Below are positions 26,124 through 35,695 of a DNA stretch of 64,000 nucleotides, one piece after another. The notes below the pieces were generated by a model. That model had not been told where the DNA came from. It did not search any database and saw nothing but the letters and a program-made list of their open reading frames with translations. Source of the DNA: Fimbriiglobus ruber (lineage in GTDB: Bacteria; Planctomycetota; Planctomycetia; Gemmatales; Gemmataceae); contig NZ_NIDE01000004.1 in assembly GCF_002197845.1 (NCBI RefSeq), positions 1 to 64,000 on the forward strand, read 5' to 3'. A program made the translations under genes and the position numbers. Positions within the stretch are counted from its first letter, which is position 1; each line of letters opens with the position of its first letter.

Positions 26124-26378
26124 ATGAATGGGACCGTGAAGAATGGGGTGATCGTGCCGGACGAGTCACTGTCACTGCCGGAGGGGGCGCGGGTTCGGTT
26201 CGAGGTGGAAGAAGTGTTCGAGTATCCACACCCAATGGCCACTTACGACCGTGAGAAGGAACTGACCGTTTTGCGAGAGTCTATCGAAGATCTCAGAGCC
26301 GGTCATGGGAGCGGAGCCCGGGAGTTCCTCAAACAACTCGCGATCGAACGAGGATTGCCGTTGGAACCCGGGGAATGA
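26124..26378 (+). CDS. AF2212-like antitoxin candidate
   Basis: This 84-residue protein starts at ATG 26124 behind GAGGG. The N-terminal half G-V-I-V-P-D-E-S-L-S-L-P-E-G-A-R-V matches the AF2212-like (DUF104) fold seen in antitoxin-like proteins. The C-terminal half is charged and helical (L-R-E-S-I-E-D-L-R-A). It is followed three bases later by a ParE/RelE-like gene, giving the classic antitoxin-toxin order. The fold assignment is from motif resemblance only. Confidence 0.7.
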   Translation: MNGTVKNGVIVPDESLSLPEGARVRFEVEEVFEYPHPMATYDREKELTVLRESIEDLRAGHGSGAREFLKQLAIERGLPLEPGE

Positions 26379-26381
26379 GTA

Positions 26382-26702
26382 ATGTCCTTCACGGTCGTCT
26401 TGCTCCCGCGGGCGAAGGCCGACATCCGGACTATCGGCGAGTGGTTCGGCAAGCCTAATAAATCTGCCGAGGCACGATGGCGGAAACGAATACTTCAAGC
26501 GGTCGATGCACTGACCACCGATCCCGTTCGCTATCCTCTGGCCGAAGACGCCATGGATTTGGGATTAGACCTTCGGGAATTGATTGTCGGTCGACGACGG
26601 GGAATCGCTCACCGCATTCTATTCACCATCGACGACCAGACCGTTCATGTGCTTCGCGTCCGTCACGCTTCCCAGGACCGGCTCTCGGACGACGACCTCT
26701 AA
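26382..26702 (+). CDS. ParE/RelE-family toxin
   Basis: This 106-residue protein has the ParE/RelE layout: L-L-P-R-A-K-A-D-I-R-T-I at the start, a central helix pair (R-W-R-K-R-I-L-Q-A-V-D-A-L), then D-L-R-E-L-I-V-G-R-R-R-G-I-A-H-R-I-L-F and the terminal V-H-V-L-R-V-R-H-A-S-Q-D. The last is the standard R-x-x-H ending of ParE-like toxins. The ATG at 26382 follows the upstream stop by three bases with a G-rich site, indicating translational coupling. Whether the target is gyrase or ribosome-bound mRNA cannot be told. Confidence 0.82.
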   Translation: MSFTVVLLPRAKADIRTIGEWFGKPNKSAEARWRKRILQAVDALTTDPVRYPLAEDAMDLGLDLRELIVGRRRGIAHRILFTIDDQTVHVLRVRHASQDRLSDDDL

Positions 26703-26772: not shown

Positions 26773-27669
26773 TTAATGCCGCGGCTGGGGCAACATCACT
26801 ACCACGTGCCGCACGACCCAGGCTCCCATCAACACGAAGAGAGCCGCGAACGTCATGCTGTAGCGATCGCGGAGTAACAGCAGCATAATCAGCGGCAATA
26901 TGACTCCGCCGCCGATCACCAGTAAAGTGTTCTGGCCGCGTTCCGTCGCGGTCAGCTTATGCATCAGCGTCGGCTTGAGTTCCGCCATGAGAAGGCCGAG
27001 CGGGAGCAAGCCGAAGACGAGCAGGACGCCGAGCCCCACGCGCAGTAATGCCTCAGCCTCCCCGTACCCGGCCCACGTCGCGATGATGAGTAACAGCGCT
27101 GTCCCAATAACGACGGCTGAAAGCGTCAGGTAGGCACCGAACCAACGGGCGTCCTTCCAGCCCGGCTGAGAACTCGTGCTGAACAGGACGCCCTTGTAAA
27201 CCGACGACCCGAGCGCGGGCAGAAGCCCGGTCGCGATGACGATCTTCCGCAGCAGGACCACGGTCGCCGTTTCGGGAAGCCAGTCGAGCCAGATCAACAG
27301 GTCGAGCCCCACGATCACCGTGAGCGGTCCCGAGTAAGCGGTCAGGCACCACGTCCCCAGCGACATCGGCGAAGTCGGTTTGAACACCCGCAGCATGTGG
27401 TGGAACCGGAGCGGGTCGCCGAGGTCGAGGACCAGGCAAAGAAGGTCCACCGTGAGGGCCACGAGGGCCACCATGTACGCGATCCGGGCCACGCCGCCGA
27501 ACACGTCGGGCATGGCGAGGTCCGCGACGGCCGCGGCAAGGAATAACCCCGTCGTTACGCCATTGAAAAAAACGTCCCAGACGACGAGGCTGTGCCAGTC
27601 CGGTGGCTTGGTCACGACGCGGTCGACGTACCCGGCCTGGCTCGTTGGCGGGGCGTGGGTGTGAGCCAT
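26773..27669 (-). CDS. NrfD-type membrane quinone-interacting subunit
   Basis: This 298-residue integral membrane protein has about eight to nine hydrophobic helices, for example F-N-G-V-T-T-G-L-F-L-A-A-A-V near residues 35-50 and G-G-V-I-L-P-L-I-M-L-L-L-L near 255. The D-W-H-S-L-V-V-W-D near the start and D-L-G-D-P-L-R-F-H-H-M-L after helix 3 are NrfD/PsrC family features. It starts one base after the FeS-subunit stop, so it is the third gene of the formate dehydrogenase operon. It should anchor the complex and pass electrons to menaquinone, in place of the cytochrome b FdnI found in E. coli FDH-N. Confidence 0.88.
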   Translation of the reverse strand: MAHTHAPPTSQAGYVDRVVTKPPDWHSLVVWDVFFNGVTTGLFLAAAVADLAMPDVFGGVARIAYMVALVALTVDLLCLVLDLGDPLRFHHMLRVFKPTSPMSLGTWCLTAYSGPLTVIVGLDLLIWLDWLPETATVVLLRKIVIATGLLPALGSSVYKGVLFSTSSQPGWKDARWFGAYLTLSAVVIGTALLLIIATWAGYGEAEALLRVGLGVLLVFGLLPLGLLMAELKPTLMHKLTATERGQNTLLVIGGGVILPLIMLLLLRDRYSMTFAALFVLMGAWVVRHVVVMLPQPRH

Positions 27670-27670
27670 G

Positions 27671-28630
27671 TTAGCGTCCCGTCAGAAACAGTGTCAGAAG
27701 CAGGACGACCAGCGCCGCCAAACCGGCGCCGACCGTGCGGACGTAGTCGCCCTTCATATGAATCCAGGGGTTGACCGCGCTCGCCGGGAGGCCGTAAACC
27801 TCCGGCCGGTCGACCAGGAGATAGAAGGAGTTCAGGTCCGAGTACGTCTCGGTCGCGGCCGCCCCATACAAGTGGGCTCTCGTCTCGCCCTTTGCGCGCA
27901 GTGTCTCGACCCGGGCGGCCGCCTTCGCCCGCAACTCGTCCACCGGGCCGAACTGGATTGACGCCGTCGGGCACGCCTTGGCACATGCTGGGACGAGGCC
28001 GTCCTTCTGGCGGTCGTAGCAGAGCGTACACTTGTGCGTGTGGCCGTCGAAGTGGCTGCGGGTGATGACGCCGAACGGGCAGGCCGCAATACAGTACGCG
28101 CAGCCGTTGCAAATGTCCGGCTGGATGTAGACGTTGCCGAACTCGTTGTAGATGATCGCACCAGTCGGACACGCCTGTTGGCACGGGGCCGTCACACAGT
28201 GTTTGCACACGTCGCTCATCATGAGCCAACGGTTGCTCTCTGGCGCGGGCGCTGAGACCACGTCTAACGAGATCTTTCCGTTGGCCGGTGCTGGCGGCGC
28301 GGCCGCAGGCGGGGTGGCGAACTGTTCGATGAATTTGACGTGCCGCCACGACCCGGCTGAGAGTTCGCCGGTGTTGTCGTAGCTGTTGCCGGACCACTGG
28401 AACTCGTCGGCCGGGAGTTGGTTCCACTGCTTGCACGCCACCTCGCACGCCTTGCACCCGATGCAGACCGTCGTGTCCGTGTAGAACCCCATCGCGCGGG
28501 CCGGTGCGGGGCGCTTGCCCCGGCGGAGCGGGTAAATGAGCCGGTGGACGATGTTGCCGATCAGACCTCGCGGCGCGACGGGGGTCTCGGTTTGGGTCAA
28601 GCCGCCGAGTTCTAGTTCCCTAACTGCCAT
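27671..28630 (-). CDS. Formate dehydrogenase iron-sulfur subunit
   Basis: This 319-residue protein carries four [4Fe-4S] ligand sets: C-I-G-C-K-A-C-E-V-A-C near residue 56, C-K-H-C-V-T-A-P-C-Q-Q-A-C-P around 135, C-N-G-C-A-Y-C-I-A-A-C-P, and C-T-L-C-Y-D-R. They are followed by C-A-K-A-C-P-T. The closing helix V-G-A-G-L-A-A-L-V-V-L-L-L-T-L-F-L is a C-terminal membrane anchor, as in FdnH/FdoH. The start ATG at 28630 overlaps the end of the catalytic gene by 11 bases, indicating coupled translation. It relays electrons from the molybdenum (or tungsten) subunit to the NrfD-type subunit. Confidence 0.92.
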   Translation of the reverse strand: MAVRELELGGLTQTETPVAPRGLIGNIVHRLIYPLRRGKRPAPARAMGFYTDTTVCIGCKACEVACKQWNQLPADEFQWSGNSYDNTGELSAGSWRHVKFIEQFATPPAAAPPAPANGKISLDVVSAPAPESNRWLMMSDVCKHCVTAPCQQACPTGAIIYNEFGNVYIQPDICNGCAYCIAACPFGVITRSHFDGHTHKCTLCYDRQKDGLVPACAKACPTASIQFGPVDELRAKAAARVETLRAKGETRAHLYGAAATETYSDLNSFYLLVDRPEVYGLPASAVNPWIHMKGDYVRTVGAGLAALVVLLLTLFLTGR

Positions 28631-31600
28631 GGGCGAATCCCCCTTCGGGTTGCGCGGCGGTCGGCGTGTTCGGGACGGGGCCCTGGATCGGCCACCCGGT
28701 CACCGCTTTGGTCGGAGGGAAGGGGGCGTCGTCGCGGTGGTTGGCGATCACCTGGCAGGCGAACACCTTGCCCTCGTGCATGCTCACGTTCGACTCGGCT
28801 ACCAGGGAAGTCAGGTCGTTGGCGTTCCCACCAACCGTCTCCCCGGCGAAGCTCCAGTGGAACGGCAGGCCGATCTGGTGGATCACCCGGCCGTCGACGA
28901 CCAGCGGCTTGATCCGCCGCGTGACCATCGCGCGGGCTTCGAGGTTGCCGCGCGGGGACGTGACCGTCACCCAGCCGCCGTGCGTCACGCCGCGGTCGGC
29001 CGCCAGTTCGGGACTGAGTTCGATGAACATCTCGGGCTGGAGTTCGTTGAGCCAGCTGTTGAACCGACTCATTGGTCCACTGAGATAGTGTTCCGTCAGC
29101 CGGAAGGTGCAGGCCACAACCGGGTACTCCGGCGACGCGGCTTTTGCCAGGTGGTTGAGCGGGCCGTCGAAGGTGCGGACGGTCGGGGTCTTTCTCTGTC
29201 CGGGATAGAGCAAGTTCCCGACCGGGGATTCGAGCGGCTCGTAGTGCGTGGGGAATGGGCCGTCCTTCAAGCCGGGGGCGAAGAGCCACCCGAGGCCGTC
29301 CGGCTTCATGATGAACGGGGCGTCGCCCGGCAGCGCGGCCATGCCCTTCGCGTCCGGCGGCGGGCGGTAGTCCGGGGCCTTGATCGGATCGAAGTCGGGC
29401 ACGTCCGCCCCGACCCACCGGCCCTTGTCCGCGTCCCACCAGATGTATCGTTTGCGTTCCGACCACGGCTGGCCGGCCGGGTCTGCCGACGCGCGGTTGT
29501 ACATCAATCGGCGGTTCTGCGGCCACGCGAAGCCCCAGTCGGGCTGGACCGGGTTGTCCGTGGTCTTGCGTTGGGCCCCGCGATTAACACCCGGCTCCGG
29601 GTAGACGCCGGCGTAAATCCAACAGCCGGACGCCGTGGTCCCGTCGTCCTTCAGTTCCGAGAACCCACCGACCAGCCGCGGGCGGCCGGACCGCGGGTCG
29701 ATGTCGTTCAGGTGGCAGCCGTTCAACTCTTGCAGAACCTGCTCGACATCGGGCTCACCTTCGATGCGGCTGGTCGTGCCGTCGGGCAGGTGGTGCTTGC
29801 CGTGGTGGTAGTCCCAGGTCAGGTTCAAGAGCGGCTGGTCGCGGTCGGCCGTCGACCCGGCGTAGAGGGCTTTCAGCCGGAGGCCGAGGTTGAAGACGAA
29901 CCAGGCGTCCGACCGGCAGTCGCCCGGCGGGTCCATCGTCTTGCCGTGCCACTGGATGAGCCGCTGGGTGTTAGTCAGCGAGCCGTCCTTCTCCGGGCTG
30001 GCAGCCGCGGGGATGAAGAAGACTTCGGTCTTCACCTCGGACGCCGGCGGTCCGGTCGGATCGCTTTTCCAGAAGACGGCGCTCTCGGTCTCGAACCAGT
30101 CGAGGACGACCAGCCAGTCCAGGTTGCGTAGCCCCGCCCGGTGTAGCCCCGCGTTCGGGCCGCCGCCGCCGGGGTTCTGGCCGAACAGGAAGTACCCTTT
30201 CATCTCCCCGCGGGACATCCGGTCGAACGTCGGGAGTTGCGAGTAGTCGCCGTCGATCCGCGGCAGCCAGTCGAATCGGTAGTCGTTCTCGGCCTTGGCC
30301 GCGTCGCCGTAGTAGGACTTCAGCAGGCTGACGATGAACTTGCGGAAGTTGGCCCAGTAGCCGGTCTTCATGCCCTCGTGATCGACGTAAGAATCGAGGG
30401 TCTTGTGCGACTCCTTACTGGTCGGCTGCGGGAGGTAGCCCGGGAGCATGTCGTACAGCGTCGACACGTCGGTCGAGCCCTGGATGCTGGAGTGGCCACG
30501 CATGGCCATGATCCCGCCGCCGGGTCGCCCGATGTTGCCGAGCAGCAGTTGCAGGATGCCGGCCGCCCGAATGGTCTGGACGCCGGTCGTGTGCTGCGTC
30601 CAGCCGACCGCGTAAACGAGGGACGTCGTCCGCTCGCGGCTCGAGTTTGCACAGAGTAACTCGGCGACGCGAACAATCTCCTCCGGGCTGCACCCGCAGA
30701 CGCGCGAGGCGATCTCCGGCGTGTACCGCTCGAAGTGTCGCCGAAGCAGTTGCATGACGCACCGGGGATTTTGGAGCGTCGGGTCGCGGGGCGGTTGCTC
30801 GTTCGGGGCCGTCGTCATGTCGGACCGCGGCAACTCGTGCGAGGTCGCGCCGCCCATGACGGCCGCGCCGTGTACTCCAGGGCTGGATTTCGAGCCCTCC
30901 GAGCCGGCGTCCGCACCGTCGCGAGCCTGGCCGTTTTGGGCTCCGTTGGCAGAAGCGTTTGCCTTGTCGCTCGGCGAGTGTTCGTATCCCCACTGCCCTT
31001 TCTCGGCGTCGTAAGACCCTTTCACGGGATCGTACCCGCTGAAGAGCCCCGCGAGGTCTTCCGTGTCGCGGAAGCCGTCCTCGATAATCATGGACGCGTT
31101 CGTGTACGCGACCACGTACTCGTGGAACCACTTCTCGTTGGTCAACACGTAGTTGATGAGGGCTCCCAGGAACGCGATATCCGAGCCGGCGCGGATGCCG
31201 ACGTATTTGTCGCACAGGGCCGACGTCCGGGAGAACCGCGGGTCGACGTGGATGAGCGTCGCACCCTTCTCTTTTGCGCGCATGGGCCAGCGGAAGCCGA
31301 CCGGGTGGGCTTCGGCCATGTTCGACCCCATGAACAGGATGCAGTCACTGTTCGCGAGGTCCTGGGTATAAGAGGTGGCCGCACCGCGGCCGAACGAAGC
31401 GCCCAGACCGGGCACTGAGGCGGAGTGTCATATCCGCGCCTGGTTCTCCACGGATACTACGCCCAGGCCGATGGTGAACAGCTTCTTGATCAGGTAGTTC
31501 TCTTCGACATCGAGCGTCGCCCCGCCGAGTGTCCCGATGCTTTTGAGTGAGTTGACCGTCTGCCCGGCCGCGTTCTTTTCGGCGAAGTCGGCGTCCCGGG

Positions 31601-31949
31601 CGTCCTTGATCTTGTTCGCGATTCGCTCCATCGCCCAGTCGAGCGGCTTCGTCTCCCACTTGTCCGAGTACGGCGCCCGGTACATGACGTGCGTGACGCG
31701 GTGTGCGTTGGTCGCGAGTTGGAAGGCGTTCGCCCCCTTGGGGCAGAGCGTCCCTTCGTTGATCGGGCTGCGCGGGTCGCCCTCGATGTCGATCAGCTTG
31801 CCGCCCTTGGTGTAAATCAACTGGCCGCAGCCGACCGCACAATACGGGCAGACGCCCGGCGTCACCGTCGCCCCCCGGAGGCGGGACGCTTTATCGCTGG
31901 TCTGGGGGCTGAACGGTTGCGGCTTGTTGGCCATCGGGAGGCGGAACAT
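28620..31949 (-). CDS. fdnG: Selenocysteine-containing formate dehydrogenase catalytic subunit
   Basis: This 1109-residue molybdopterin enzyme oxidises formate. C34-X2-C37-X3-C41 with C69 (L-C-P-K-G) bind the proximal [4Fe-4S] cluster. At residue 174 there is an in-frame TGA (31430-31428) inside V-E-N-Q-A-R-I-[U]-H-S-A-S-V-P, the exact place of selenocysteine in FDH-N/FDH-O (compare N-Q-A-R-V-U-H). Reading continues in frame with F-G-R-G-A-A-T and N-M-A-E-A-H-P-V-G for another 935 residues. A SECIS-like hairpin follows the TGA. No twin-arginine signal precedes the cluster domain, unlike E. coli FdnG. A 60-residue low-complexity insert lies around residues 325-390. It is first in the operon with the FeS and NrfD genes. 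Confidence 0.92.
31398..31430 (-). promoter_or_regulatory. Bacterial SECIS element after in-frame UGA
   Basis: On the minus strand the UGA (31430-31428) is followed by 11 bases and then AGUGCCCGGUCUGGGCGCU (31416-31398). This folds into a seven-pair stem (AGUGCCC with GGGCGCU, one G-U pair) with the loop GGUCU. The GGUCU loop and 11-base spacing match the E. coli fdhF SECIS, which recruits SelB with Sec-tRNA. This explains readthrough of the UGA as selenocysteine. It lacks the bulged U of the E. coli element, so SelB contact details may differ. Confidence 0.88.
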
Positions 31950-32281
31950 GGTGCTTCTCGGGTTCGAGAACCGCGGCGAGATCGGGATGCCGGCAACGAA
32001 CGATCTATTTTAATGTACTGTATCGGACATGCGCCTTACACCGTTTGCTCGCTTTCTTGACGGCGACAGTACGTCGGGCGATCTCTGCCTTGTAAAGCGC
32101 GTTATACCGAAGTGATGGACGGGCCCGTCACGCTTGTTCTCTGAGGCATTTCAGATCGCGCCGGCGCCCGCCGAACGCTCCCGAAATGTGAGCGGTGTAC
32201 GCCGTCTCCAGGATTTCTTGCGCCGCGGGTGCCCCGAACGGGCATTACCCGGAAACAATCCGAGTAGCCGGAGGAACCGCG
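31950..32281. other. Divergent intergenic region, formate dehydrogenase / sigma factor
   Basis: This 332-base region separates the minus-strand formate dehydrogenase operon from the plus-strand sigma-WD40 gene, so it should contain both promoters. It has no gene or strong repeat. The stretch 32004-32040 is relatively AT-rich, and GGAGG at 32270-32274 serves the sigma-factor gene. No operator was recognised. Confidence 0.5.
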
Positions 32282-35200
32282 ATGTCCCGCCTCGAACTTC
32301 ACTGCGTAACCGCCTTGCTCCGAACCGACGCCGGTGTCAAACCGCCTACCGACGCCGAACTACTCGCCCGCTTCTCCGCCGACCGGGACGAGGGGGCATT
32401 CGCTGAACTGGTCACGCGACACGGCGGGTTGGTCCTCGGGACGGCCCGCCGCCACCTCGGCGACCGACATGCGGCCGAGGACGTGTTCCAGGCCACGTTC
32501 CTGGTCCTCGCCCGCAAGGCCGGCACCGGGCGGTGGGGGCACACGGTCGGCCCGTGGCTGTACGCGACCGCCGCCCGTCTCGCGCGGAAGGCCCGCCGGC
32601 CTTCTCCCTTCGCCGGTCAAGCCGACGTCCCGATGACCGGCCCCGACCCCGCGGTGGCCGCCGCCTGGGGCGAAGTCTGCCGGGCGGTGGACGAGGAACT
32701 CGCCGCACTGCCCGAATCCGTCCGCGGGCCGCTCGTGCTGTGCTACCTCCAGGGCCGCACCCGGGACGAGGCGGCGGCGTTGCTCGGGTGCTCACTGGCC
32801 AAACTGAAACGGCGCCTGGAGCGCGGGCGGAACATCCTCCACGACCGGCTCGCCCGCCGCGGGATCGGCCTCCCGGCCGCAGGCGTCGGCGTGCTGGCCA
32901 CCGATCTCGCGGTCGCGGCGGTCGACGCCCGCGCCACGGCATGCGCCGCGGCGTCCCACGTCGCGGCCGGCCACGCCTCCACCGGGCTGATGGCGCTGCT
33001 CGGCGGCCGCTTCGCCTGGACCAAGGCTGTAGTCGTCGCCGTCGCGCTCGTCGCGTGCGGAGTCGGGCTGGTCGGAGCCGCCGGGTGGGTCGGGAACGAG
33101 ACCCCGGCCGCTCCGATCGAACCGCCAAGTCTCCCGAAAGGGAGCAAGGAGGACGTCCGTACCGATCGGTTCGGAGATCCGCTGCCGGCGGGCGCCCTGC
33201 TCCGCCTGGGGACGAGCCGGCACCGCGCGGCGGGCGCCCACGTAGCGGTGACGCCGGACGGCAAGTCGGTAGTGACCGCCGGCGACGATCTGGTTCTCCG
33301 CGTTTTCGACACGACCACCGGGGAAATACGGGAGACGCGTCGCCTGGACGGCCCGCCAACCTACCACACCGCCCTCTCGGCTGACGGCCGCTATCTGGTG
33401 GGCGCATCGTACCCGGCCCCGGAGAGGGTCGAACTCCGTGTGTGGGACCTGACCACCGGTAAGTTCGTCAGGCAGCTCGCGCTAGACCGGGGCCCGGCCG
33501 ACGCGCTTGCGATCCACGCCGGCACAACGAAGGTGGCCTTCGTTCGCGGCCCGCTCACCTGGCCGCCCTCCATCCAGAAGGCATATGTATGGGATTTCGC
33601 GACCGGTGCCGAACCGGTCAAGGTAAGCGAATTCAAGCCGACGCCACAGCGTTTCGGCGAGTCTCGCACCCTGTTCTCCCCGGACGGGTCGAGGCTGCTC
33701 GTCCGCCAACCCGACGGCCAGTTACTTTGTTGGGACGTTGGGGGCCGGAAAACCCTGTGGGAGAAGTCGCGGCCGTACATCAAGTTCTTTTTCTTCGCCC
33801 CCGACGGCAAGACCGTAGTCACCGAGCGTGAAGGCGTCAACCTATCTGGCTTCCAGCGGTGGTCGGCCGCCGACGGAGCCAGGGTGGACGGGCCGGAGTG
33901 GGACGGCAAGGGGGTCAAGGACACTTACGGATACGCGCCGGTGGCGGAATCCGCGGACGGGAAACTGGTGGCCCTGGTCCACGGGCAGAAACAGATCGTT
34001 TTCTTCGACACGGTCAAAAAGGCCATCGTCCGGGAACTGAATGACCCGCGCCGGGCACCCGGGGAGGCGGCCGTCGGCTACTGGGCCGTCCCGACCAACT
34101 TCGCCTTTACCCCGGACGGGACCGGATTCCTATGGCGGTCGCCGACCCTCCAGCGCTGGGACATCGCGACCGGGAAGGCGACGTGGCCAGCCACGTGGGA
34201 CCAGGGGCACACTGAGGCCGTCATCCGCCTCCTTTTCGCGCCCGACGGTACCGCCCTCGTTTCCATGGCCGACGACGATCGTTGCTACGTGTGGGACCTG
34301 GCGTCGGGCCGCCCCAGGCACCGACTACCGAAGAGGTACGGTAACCTCGCCGCGATCAGCGCGGACAGCCGCACGCTGTTCGCGTCGGACGATTGTTACG
34401 TGCCGCCGAAAGCCTGGGACCTGACCTCCGGGATAGGCGAGCCACTTCTGAAAGGGGACACTCTTTTTCCACAGTACGCCTCGGGTGGAGGTCGGGAGAT
34501 CGCCTTGACTCCGGACGGGAAGCAACTCGTCACCGTGACCGACAATCACATCGGCAAGCAGCGCATCCCAACCGGCCGCTATCTGACGGTGTGGGATCTC
34601 TCCTCCGGGAAACTCGCCCGGGAAGAGAAGATCGGTGAAGGCGGGGACGCGCCCGTCCTCGCCCCGGGGGGACAGTCGTACGCGGTCGTGTCCCGCGCCG
34701 GGCCGACCGCGGGCGTCCGCCTCGTTGCCACGGCGACCGGCAAGGAAATCGGCGGGCTGGTGGATAATGACGTCGCCGAGAACAGCAGTCCGCGGGTGGT
34801 TCTGGAGCCGGTGTTCTCATCAGACGGGCGGTTGCTGGCCACACGGGTGAGCGACGACACCGGCACGAGTCGGTCGGTCGGTGACTATCCGGTGCGGGTG
34901 TGGGACGTCGCGACCACTAGCCTCATTACTGAGTTCCCCGCCGCAGGGGCAGTCCGTTTCGCGTTCTCGCCGGACGCGCGGTCCCTGGTGGTCGCCGGGC
35001 CGGGCGGCTTCCGGGTCTACGAGTTGGCCAGCCGGAAAGAAATACAAGCAGTGTCGGCGACGGGGGTGATACGGGGTCGAAAGCCCGGCCCGTTCGCCAC
35101 CGCACTGGCCGTCGGCCCGGGTGGGCGGACAGTCGCCACGGGGCACGGCGACGGGACGATTTTGGTCTGGGACGCAACGCCGCCGCGGGCCGCGCTCCGC

Positions 35201-35695
35201 GCGGCGGACGTGAACACGGTGTGGGCGGCCCTGGCCGACGCGGATGCGAAGGCGGCCCACACCGCGGTACTCCGACTCGCGGAGGCCCCCGATCTCGCGT
35301 TGCGACTGTTCGAGGATAAGCTCAAGCCGGCCACCCAGGCTCCGGGTGCGACGGACCTGGTGCGACGACTGGACGCGGAGGACGTCAAAGAGCGAGAAGC
35401 GGCCGAAGCGAAACTGCGAGCGTTCGGGAGCCGAGCCGAGCCAGCCCTCTCCGCGGCTATGGCTGGTCAGCCTTCGGCCGAAGTCCGCGCCCGCGCCGGG
35501 CGATTGCTGGCTGCCCTGTCCCTGGCGGTGGCGCCACCCGACGAGGATCTGAGGGACATCCGGGCCGTGGAAGTGCTGGAGGCTATCGGGACACCTGCGG
35601 CCCGGCAGTTCCTGTCCCGGCTCTCGACCGGGGAATCCGGAGTCCGGCTGACCCGGGAGGCGAAGGCGACTTTCACCCGGCTCGGCGGCCGGTAA
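32282..35695 (+). CDS. ECF sigma factor fused to transmembrane helix and WD40 propeller
   Basis: This 1137-residue protein starts at ATG 32282 behind GGAGG. Sigma region 2 is at about residues 25-85 (D-E-G-A-F-A-E-L-V then D-V-F-Q-A-T-F-L-V-L-A-R-K-A) and region 4 at about 145-200 (L-P-E-S-V-R-G-P-L-V-L-C-Y, T-R-D-E-A-A-A-L-L-G-C-S). A single membrane helix follows near 245-268 (A-V-V-V-A-V-A-L-V-A-C-G). Residues about 300-970 contain WD40-like repeats (W-D-L-T-T-G-K, V-W-D-L-A-S-G-R). The C-terminal part has HEAT-like helices (R-R-L-D-A-E-D-V-K-E-R-E-A-A). The topology puts the sigma domain in the cytoplasm and the propeller outside, a one-protein signal sensor. Such C-terminally extended ECFs are known in Gemmata. 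Confidence 0.9.
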   Translation: MSRLELHCVTALLRTDAGVKPPTDAELLARFSADRDEGAFAELVTRHGGLVLGTARRHLGDRHAAEDVFQATFLVLARKAGTGRWGHTVGPWLYATAARLARKARRPSPFAGQADVPMTGPDPAVAAAWGEVCRAVDEELAALPESVRGPLVLCYLQGRTRDEAAALLGCSLAKLKRRLERGRNILHDRLARRGIGLPAAGVGVLATDLAVAAVDARATACAAASHVAAGHASTGLMALLGGRFAWTKAVVVAVALVACGVGLVGAAGWVGNETPAAPIEPPSLPKGSKEDVRTDRFGDPLPAGALLRLGTSRHRAAGAHVAVTPDGKSVVTAGDDLVLRVFDTTTGEIRETRRLDGPPTYHTALSADGRYLVGASYPAPERVELRVWDLTTGKFVRQLALDRGPADALAIHAGTTKVAFVRGPLTWPPSIQKAYVWDFATGAEPVKVSEFKPTPQRFGESRTLFSPDGSRLLVRQPDGQLLCWDVGGRKTLWEKSRPYIKFFFFAPDGKTVVTEREGVNLSGFQRWSAADGARVDGPEWDGKGVKDTYGYAPVAESADGKLVALVHGQKQIVFFDTVKKAIVRELNDPRRAPGEAAVGYWAVPTNFAFTPDGTGFLWRSPTLQRWDIATGKATWPATWDQGHTEAVIRLLFAPDGTALVSMADDDRCYVWDLASGRPRHRLPKRYGNLAAISADSRTLFASDDCYVPPKAWDLTSGIGEPLLKGDTLFPQYASGGGREIALTPDGKQLVTVTDNHIGKQRIPTGRYLTVWDLSSGKLAREEKIGEGGDAPVLAPGGQSYAVVSRAGPTAGVRLVATATGKEIGGLVDNDVAENSSPRVVLEPVFSSDGRLLATRVSDDTGTSRSVGDYPVRVWDVATTSLITEFPAAGAVRFAFSPDARSLVVAGPGGFRVYELASRKEIQAVSATGVIRGRKPGPFATALAVGPGGRTVATGHGDGTILVWDATPPRAALRAADVNTVWAALADADAKAAHTAVLRLAEAPDLALRLFEDKLKPATQAPGATDLVRRLDAEDVKEREAAEAKLRAFGSRAEPALSAAMAGQPSAEVRARAGRLLAALSLAVAPPDEDLRDIRAVEVLEAIGTPAARQFLSRLSTGESGVRLTREAKATFTRLGGR

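What the first reader, a model, noticed from the sequence alone, without database searches (positions are those of the whole stretch)
28620..31949. Formate dehydrogenase catalytic gene with in-frame UGA and SECIS: a selenoprotein easily mis-annotated as two genes
The frame from 31949 reaches TGA at 31430-31428 in N-Q-A-R-I-stop-H-S-A-S-V and continues in the same frame for 935 residues of FDH-N-like sequence. This is the conserved selenocysteine position. Eleven bases downstream a seven-pair stem with a GGUCU loop matches the fdhF SECIS in spacing and loop. A planctomycete with this should encode selA, selB, selC and selD elsewhere.
Basis: partly seen in the sequence, partly recalled or inferred. 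Interest (0 to 1): 0.72.

Follow-up and report, generated by a model that had tools for sequence, protein, structure and literature searches.

The report
Ordinary planctomycete selenocysteine formate dehydrogenase gene
This planctomycete gene very probably reads an internal stop codon as the selenium amino acid selenocysteine to make a formate-oxidising enzyme, a well-known kind of enzyme that simple gene finding splits into two genes.

Summary
The minus-strand frame from 31949 meets TGA at 31430-31428 after 173 codons and stays open for 935 more. Eleven bases on lies a 7-pair hairpin with a GGUCU loop that meets the four published bacterial SECIS criteria. The genome has tRNA-Sec(UCA), selA, selB, selD and fdhD. 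Apart from the window copy and two E. coli controls, 73 of 75 related loci carry TGA at this codon and 2 carry TGC; 9 of the 75 are duplicates. Both TGC copies keep only 3 or 4 of 7 hairpin pairs, and the one TGC genome examined has no selA match and no selB above cut-off. Hairpin codons are the most synonymously constrained stretch of the gene. A SECIS model built without the window finds this site at E 8e-9 in 12.4 Mb; the next is 1.0. It is a selenocysteine formate dehydrogenase in an alpha-beta-NrfD operon: a new member of a known kind. Planctomycete Sec machinery and a Sec fdhA were printed in 2016 (PMC4807772). Unlike true FDH-N it has no Tat leader and an NrfD subunit.

The parts
28620..31949 (-). 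formate dehydrogenase catalytic (alpha) subunit, 1109 residues with Sec at residue 174; Fe4S4 N-terminal domain, molybdopterin domain, dinucleotide-binding C-terminal domain
   Evidence: read-through translation; NF041513 and TIGR01553 over curated cut-offs; Pfam PF04879, PF00384, PF01568
31428..31430 (-). in-frame TGA read as selenocysteine 174 (followed by His175)
   Evidence: same codon TGA in 76 of 78 loci (window and two E. coli controls included), TGC in the other 2; aligns with X of 8cm4
31398..31416 (-). SECIS apical hairpin AGUGCCC-GGUCU-GGGCGCU, 11 bases after the UGA
   Evidence: fold -11.6 kcal/mol; pair counts on 37 other sequences; held-out covariance model hit; lowest codon entropy of the gene
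31428..31949 (-). 173-codon upstream piece that a standard ORF listing reports as a separate ORF
28620..31415 (-). 931-codon downstream piece (GTG start inside the hairpin) that a standard ORF listing reports as a second ORF
27671..28630 (-). beta subunit: 4Fe-4S ferredoxin-like protein with a C-terminal hydrophobic stretch; its start overlaps the alpha stop by 11 bases
   Evidence: TIGR01582 best hit but below its cut-off (151 against 335); PF13247; junction
26773..27669 (-). NrfD-type membrane subunit, ATG one base after the beta stop
   Evidence: PF03916 53.4 bits, cut-off 25.8; junction; neighbour kept in relatives

Best explanation
The gene encodes the catalytic subunit of a molybdenum/tungsten formate dehydrogenase whose active-site residue 174 is selenocysteine. 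Shown here: the codon, hairpin, machinery genes, conservation and operon. Inferred from E. coli: SelA and SelD make Sec-tRNA(UCA); SelB binds the hairpin just after the UGA and delivers that tRNA, so the ribosome inserts Sec instead of ending; FdhD helps mature the cofactor. Inferred: alpha passes formate electrons through the Fe-S beta subunit to an NrfD-type membrane subunit and the quinone pool. Because alpha has no Tat leader, the enzyme probably faces the cytoplasm.
For: Coordinates. Sec machinery in the same genome: tRNA-Sec 70.7 bits, ARAGORN SeC with anticodon tca; selB 331 bits, 363 with its C-terminal part, cut-off 242; selA 557 bits, cut-off 268; selD 362 bits, cut-off 125; fdhD 159 bits, cut-off 141. 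TGA in 76 of 78 loci, window, two E. coli controls and 9 duplicates included. 95.4% of 259 hairpin cells pair, 16 cells with double changes, slid controls 32-52%. Mean codon entropy 0.15 over codons +5 to +11 against 1.06 over 474 conserved columns. Held-out model E 8.2e-9, next 1.0. dN/dS 0.16-0.31 after the UGA in 5 of 5 pairs compared. Of 24 sampled genomes with the TGA gene (the window's own included), 23 have selA (15, 16, 20); the TGC genome G203 has no selA match and no selB above cut-off.
Against: Hairpin stability alone is unremarkable against shuffles. The number of pairs with a double change (2) is reached by 185 of 500 shuffles, and the basal pair fails in 11 of 37 sequences. Two relatives with TGA (L089, L091) do not form this stem, and E. 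coli fdhF does not form it in this register. G131 carries the TGA gene but only a weak, below-cut-off selA match; it is 83% complete. No Rfam family matches the window at gathering score. No expression or protein data.
Confidence: 0.96

Rival explanations
1. The TGA is a nonsense mutation or sequencing error, and the locus is a pseudogene or two split genes.
For: A standard ORF listing reports two ORFs.
Against: The same TGA stands in 73 of 75 related loci, 9 of them duplicates; dN/dS after the TGA is 0.16-0.31 in 5 of 5 pairs; the hairpin codons are held fixed; a full Sec machinery is present.
Confidence: 0.01
2. UGA is read as another residue (for example Trp or Cys) by suppression or near-cognate read-through, not by SelB.
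For: No direct evidence found; two relatives use Cys at this place.
Against: Hairpin with covariation, machinery present, the two Cys homologs have a degenerate hairpin, and G203 with Cys has no selA match and no selB above cut-off.
Confidence: 0.02
3. The complex is a periplasm-facing FDH-N in the E. coli manner, with a leader or partner I failed to recognise.
For: The catalytic subunit passes the TIGR01553 cut-off; more distant relatives L042-L045 and L051 do have a twin-arginine leader.
Against: No RR-x-[FLIVM] anywhere in the open frame upstream of the first Cys motif in the window; the third subunit matches NrfD.
Confidence: 0.15

Closest known systems
NF041513 'formate_DH_Act' / TIGR01553 formate dehydrogenase alpha (here: loci of Actinomycetota and Geobacteraceae)
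   Same: Sec codon at the catalytic place, same family models; the window's read-through protein passes both curated cut-offs; loci in Pseudonocardia, Micromonospora and Geomonas have TGA and matches to the window's beta and NrfD genes after alpha
   Different: only about 50-53% identical over the best segment; the window has a 62-residue low-complexity stretch (compared only within the window's own branch, where 29 other loci have 6-58)
E. coli FDH-N (FdnGHI, 1kqf)
   Same: homologous catalytic subunit (772 bits), UGA codon at the same place
   Different: E. coli FdnG has a twin-arginine leader and, from general knowledge, a cytochrome b556 subunit; I found neither in the window operon
Desulfovibrio vulgaris FdhAB (8cm4, 9qm0; species name recalled)
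   Same: best PDB matches, Sec place aligned
   Different: periplasmic two-subunit enzyme (general knowledge); here an NrfD partner and no leader
Sec fdhA of planctomycete P1 (PMC4807772)
   Same: Sec formate dehydrogenase gene in a planctomycete, Sec genes not clustered with it (section read)
   Different: P1 fdhA sits with nuoEF; this one sits with a beta and an NrfD gene

Membership tests
Selenocysteine formate dehydrogenase alpha subunit (FdhA) | Scores above curated family cut-off | tested here: met
   NF041513 1432.2 bits (cut-off 1400), TIGR01553 1018.4 (814.2); the margin for NF041513 is small
Selenocysteine formate dehydrogenase alpha subunit (FdhA) | In-frame UGA at the catalytic Sec followed by His | tested here: met
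   U174-H175, aligned to X-H of 8cm4
Selenocysteine formate dehydrogenase alpha subunit (FdhA) | Full UHxP motif listed for FdhA in PMC13188914 (passage) | tested here: not met
   the window reads U-H-S-A-S-V-P: U and H are kept, P is not at the fourth place. The listed motif is a description, not a membership rule, and the family models are passed
Selenocysteine formate dehydrogenase alpha subunit (FdhA) | Formate oxidation activity | not testable with these tools
   needs an enzyme assay
Bacterial SECIS (bSECIS) | 3-9 nt loop, 4-16 bp upper stem, G in the first two loop places, 16-37 nt from UGA to loop, MFE at or below -7.5 kcal/mol | tested here: met
   5 nt loop GGUCU, 7 bp, 18 nt, -11.6 kcal/mol against the criteria in the PMC13188914 Fig. 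2 legend
Bacterial SECIS (bSECIS) | Bound by SelB and needed for insertion | not testable with these tools
   needs binding and reporter assays
Sec-decoding trait | tRNA-Sec, SelA, SelB, SelD in the genome | tested here: met
FDH-N in the strict sense (FdnGHI) | Twin-arginine leader on alpha | tested here: not met
   no RR-x-[FLIVM] in the window frame; present in the E. coli FdnG control
FDH-N in the strict sense (FdnGHI) | FDH-beta equivalog and cytochrome b556 gamma subunit | tested here: not met
   TIGR01582 151 bits, cut-off 335; third gene matches NrfD PF03916

The most novel reading that the evidence does not exclude
A distinct branch of selenocysteine formate dehydrogenases, without a Tat leader and anchored by an NrfD subunit, faces the cytoplasm. 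It has spread by horizontal transfer among Planctomycetota, Acidobacteriota and other phyla, where it may couple cytoplasmic formate oxidation (or CO2 reduction) to the quinone pool.
Probability: 0.45. Interest if true: 0.4.

Novelty: new member of a known kind. Interest (0 to 1): 0.2.

Why it matters
It is a clean annotation case: naive ORF finding gives two ORFs and hides an active-site selenocysteine. It adds a Sec enzyme with full machinery in Gemmataceae and a natural control (a Cys form with a degenerate hairpin in a genome with no selA match and no selB above cut-off). It changes no principle: FdhA is described as the most widely distributed bacterial selenoprotein family (PMC13188914, passage).

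Tried and rejected
Rejected: pseudogene or sequencing error (conserved TGA, purifying selection after it). Rejected: chance hairpin; folding z-scores were weak (-1.34 to +0.28 over 5 stretches), so comparative tests were used instead. Rfam gave no match in the window at gathering thresholds. The SECIS model found no second convincing site of this type in the genome (150 of 19126 first-look candidates were scored, and other SECIS types would be missed). No structure prediction was run, because solved homologs settle the fold. A plasmid search with a motif-like peptide matched 14 records and was not used.

Rows dropped before counts: 9 of the 87 loci L022-L108 gave no Sec-codon position (L038, L041, L047, L048, L083, L085, L087, L100, L101). 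The 78 left include the window's own copy (L022) and two E. coli controls. From 42 distinct 33-base TGA sequences, 5 were left out of alignment A1 (L022, L089, L091, L107, L108). The codon entropy test used 30 of 78 loci chosen by me, the window included; 29 are distinct since L049 and L070 are the same DNA, and L026 held an undefined residue. dN/dS was computed for 5 partner loci. The tree used 60 rows. The TGC hairpins were compared in the same register only and not refolded. One class-sample relative (G208) has a TAG inside its match and was not studied. In the class searches of FDH at most 2 candidates per genome were scored in the rows listed, so some copies may be missed.

Literature: PMC4807772, the section on selenoproteins plus passages; PMC1794560, PMC13188914 and PMC8808070, passages only. 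Eight searches were seen as listings only; I saw no title or abstract start that names this gene, and Fimbriiglobus+selenocysteine returned no paper. The library holds open-licence PMC papers only, so this does not show that the gene is absent from print.

Full report
What was checked. The minus-strand frame from ATG 31949 runs 173 codons to TGA 31430-31428 and then stays open for 935 codons to a stop ending at 28620. The next bases are an 11-base spacer, AGUGCCC, GGUCU and GGGCGCU.

What the protein is. Read through, it passes the curated cut-offs of NF041513 and TIGR01553, and carries the Fe4S4, molybdopterin and dinucleotide-binding Pfam domains. Split at the TGA, the first piece passes neither cut-off; the second passes only TIGR01553, by 18 bits. 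The best-scoring solved structures are annotated as selenocysteine-containing formate dehydrogenase alpha subunits; the X of 8cm4 lines up with the TGA and is followed by the same His.

Is the UGA decoded as Sec? The genome (12.36 Mb, 97% complete) holds tRNA-Sec on contig C11 (70.7 bits; ARAGORN SeC, anticodon tca; the next two Rfam hits are tRNA-Ser). It also holds selB on C1, selA on C1, selD on C5 with a Cys-type CxxK site, fdhD on C1 and a 2-selenouridine synthase on C14. None lies next to another: selA and selB are over 500 kb apart on C1.

Related loci. A search of 397 genomes of the class found the gene in 27, the window's own included, and a named genome scan found 55 loci. With two E. 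coli controls, 78 loci cover the Sec codon: 76 TGA and 2 TGC. Leaving out the window and E. coli, that is 73 TGA and 2 TGC of 75; nine pairs between the two sets are the same DNA, so distinct relatives number at most 66. Of 24 class-sample genomes with the TGA form (the window's own included), 23 have selA; the exception, G131, is 83% complete, has selB above cut-off and only a weak selA match. The one class-sample genome with TGC, G203, has no selA match and no selB above cut-off. The genome of the other TGC copy (L099) was not examined.

Is the hairpin under selection? On 37 distinct sequences that exclude the window, 95.4% of 259 cells pair; slid controls give 32-52%; the covariation score is 0.297 against 0.148 shuffled, none of 500 reaching it. 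Double changes occur at 2 of 7 pairs, which is not itself unusual (185 of 500 shuffles), and the basal pair is open in 11 of 37. The two TGC genes keep 3 of 7 and 4 of 7 pairs in this register, and one also lost the GGUCU loop. Two TGA relatives (L089, L091) do not form this stem either. Among 474 conserved codon columns of 30 chosen loci, mean codon entropy is 1.06; over codons +5 to +11 it is 0.15, second lowest of 247 stretches, the lowest being the overlapping one that starts at +4. A covariance model built without the window scores the window site 52.8 bits, E 8.2e-9 for the whole genome; the next site has E 1.0. The hairpin meets the four bSECIS criteria quoted in PMC13188914.

Surroundings. 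The beta gene overlaps the alpha stop by 11 bases and the NrfD gene starts one base after the beta stop, so translation of all three is probably coupled and depends on read-through (inference). In the window's branch of the tree, all 15 loci with at least 3 kb held after alpha match both the beta and the NrfD gene there; L062, with 1451 bases after alpha, matches neither. The alpha frame has no twin-arginine motif before its first Cys motif, whereas FdnG and the more distant L042-L045 and L051 do. The motif flag is crude: it also fires on upstream frame in a few close relatives (L031, L035, L040, L102). Hence the proposed cytoplasm-facing, quinone-linked enzyme; that orientation is inferred, not shown.

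Origin. G271, marked same genus, gave a locus that is the same DNA as a record titled Fimbriiglobus sp., so the window is probably from Fimbriiglobus (Gemmataceae); no call identified the species. In a quick tree of 60 rows the window groups with Gemmataceae rows; the Granulicella and Edaphobacter isolates and one Binataceae MAG (L060) fall among planctomycete rows, while other Binataceae rows stand outside. This suggests horizontal transfer, with the caveats of a quick tree, modest support at some forks and possible MAG mis-binning.

Against what is known. Sec genes in G. obscuriglobus and I. pallida, a Sec fdhA in planctomycete P1 and repeated transfer of fdhA were published in 2016 (PMC4807772). 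FdhA is described as the most widely distributed bacterial selenoprotein family (PMC13188914). The finding is real and correctly read, and ordinary.

Noticed in passing
class sample of 397 genomes: 215 of 397 genomes have selA at E <= 1e-60 but only 27 have a match to this FDH at E <= 1e-100; a second, shorter FdhA-like family with one TGA appears in 21 listed rows (list cut off, few candidates scored per genome). Many Sec-decoding planctomycetes may keep the trait for other selenoproteins.
   Followed up: partly
G000:C14:1312610-1313524: A tRNA 2-selenouridine synthase (TIGR03167, 366 bits) is present here, while PMC4807772 reports none in G. obscuriglobus and I. pallida.
   Followed up: no
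window 26124-26702 (+): A ParE-type toxin gene (PF05016) with a small upstream ORF without a Pfam match, perhaps its antitoxin, lies just beyond the end of the FDH operon on the other strand.
   Followed up: no
window 32195-35695 (+): One ORF joins sigma-70 regions 2 and 4 with a long WD40-like beta-propeller part.
   Followed up: no
G000:C1:84267-86315: A second formate-dehydrogenase-like oxidoreductase without an in-frame stop, below the TIGR01591 cut-off.
   Followed up: no
alpha residues about 323-384 (window about 30800-30980, -): A low-complexity stretch of 62 residues whose length varies from 6 to 62 in 30 loci.
   Followed up: partly
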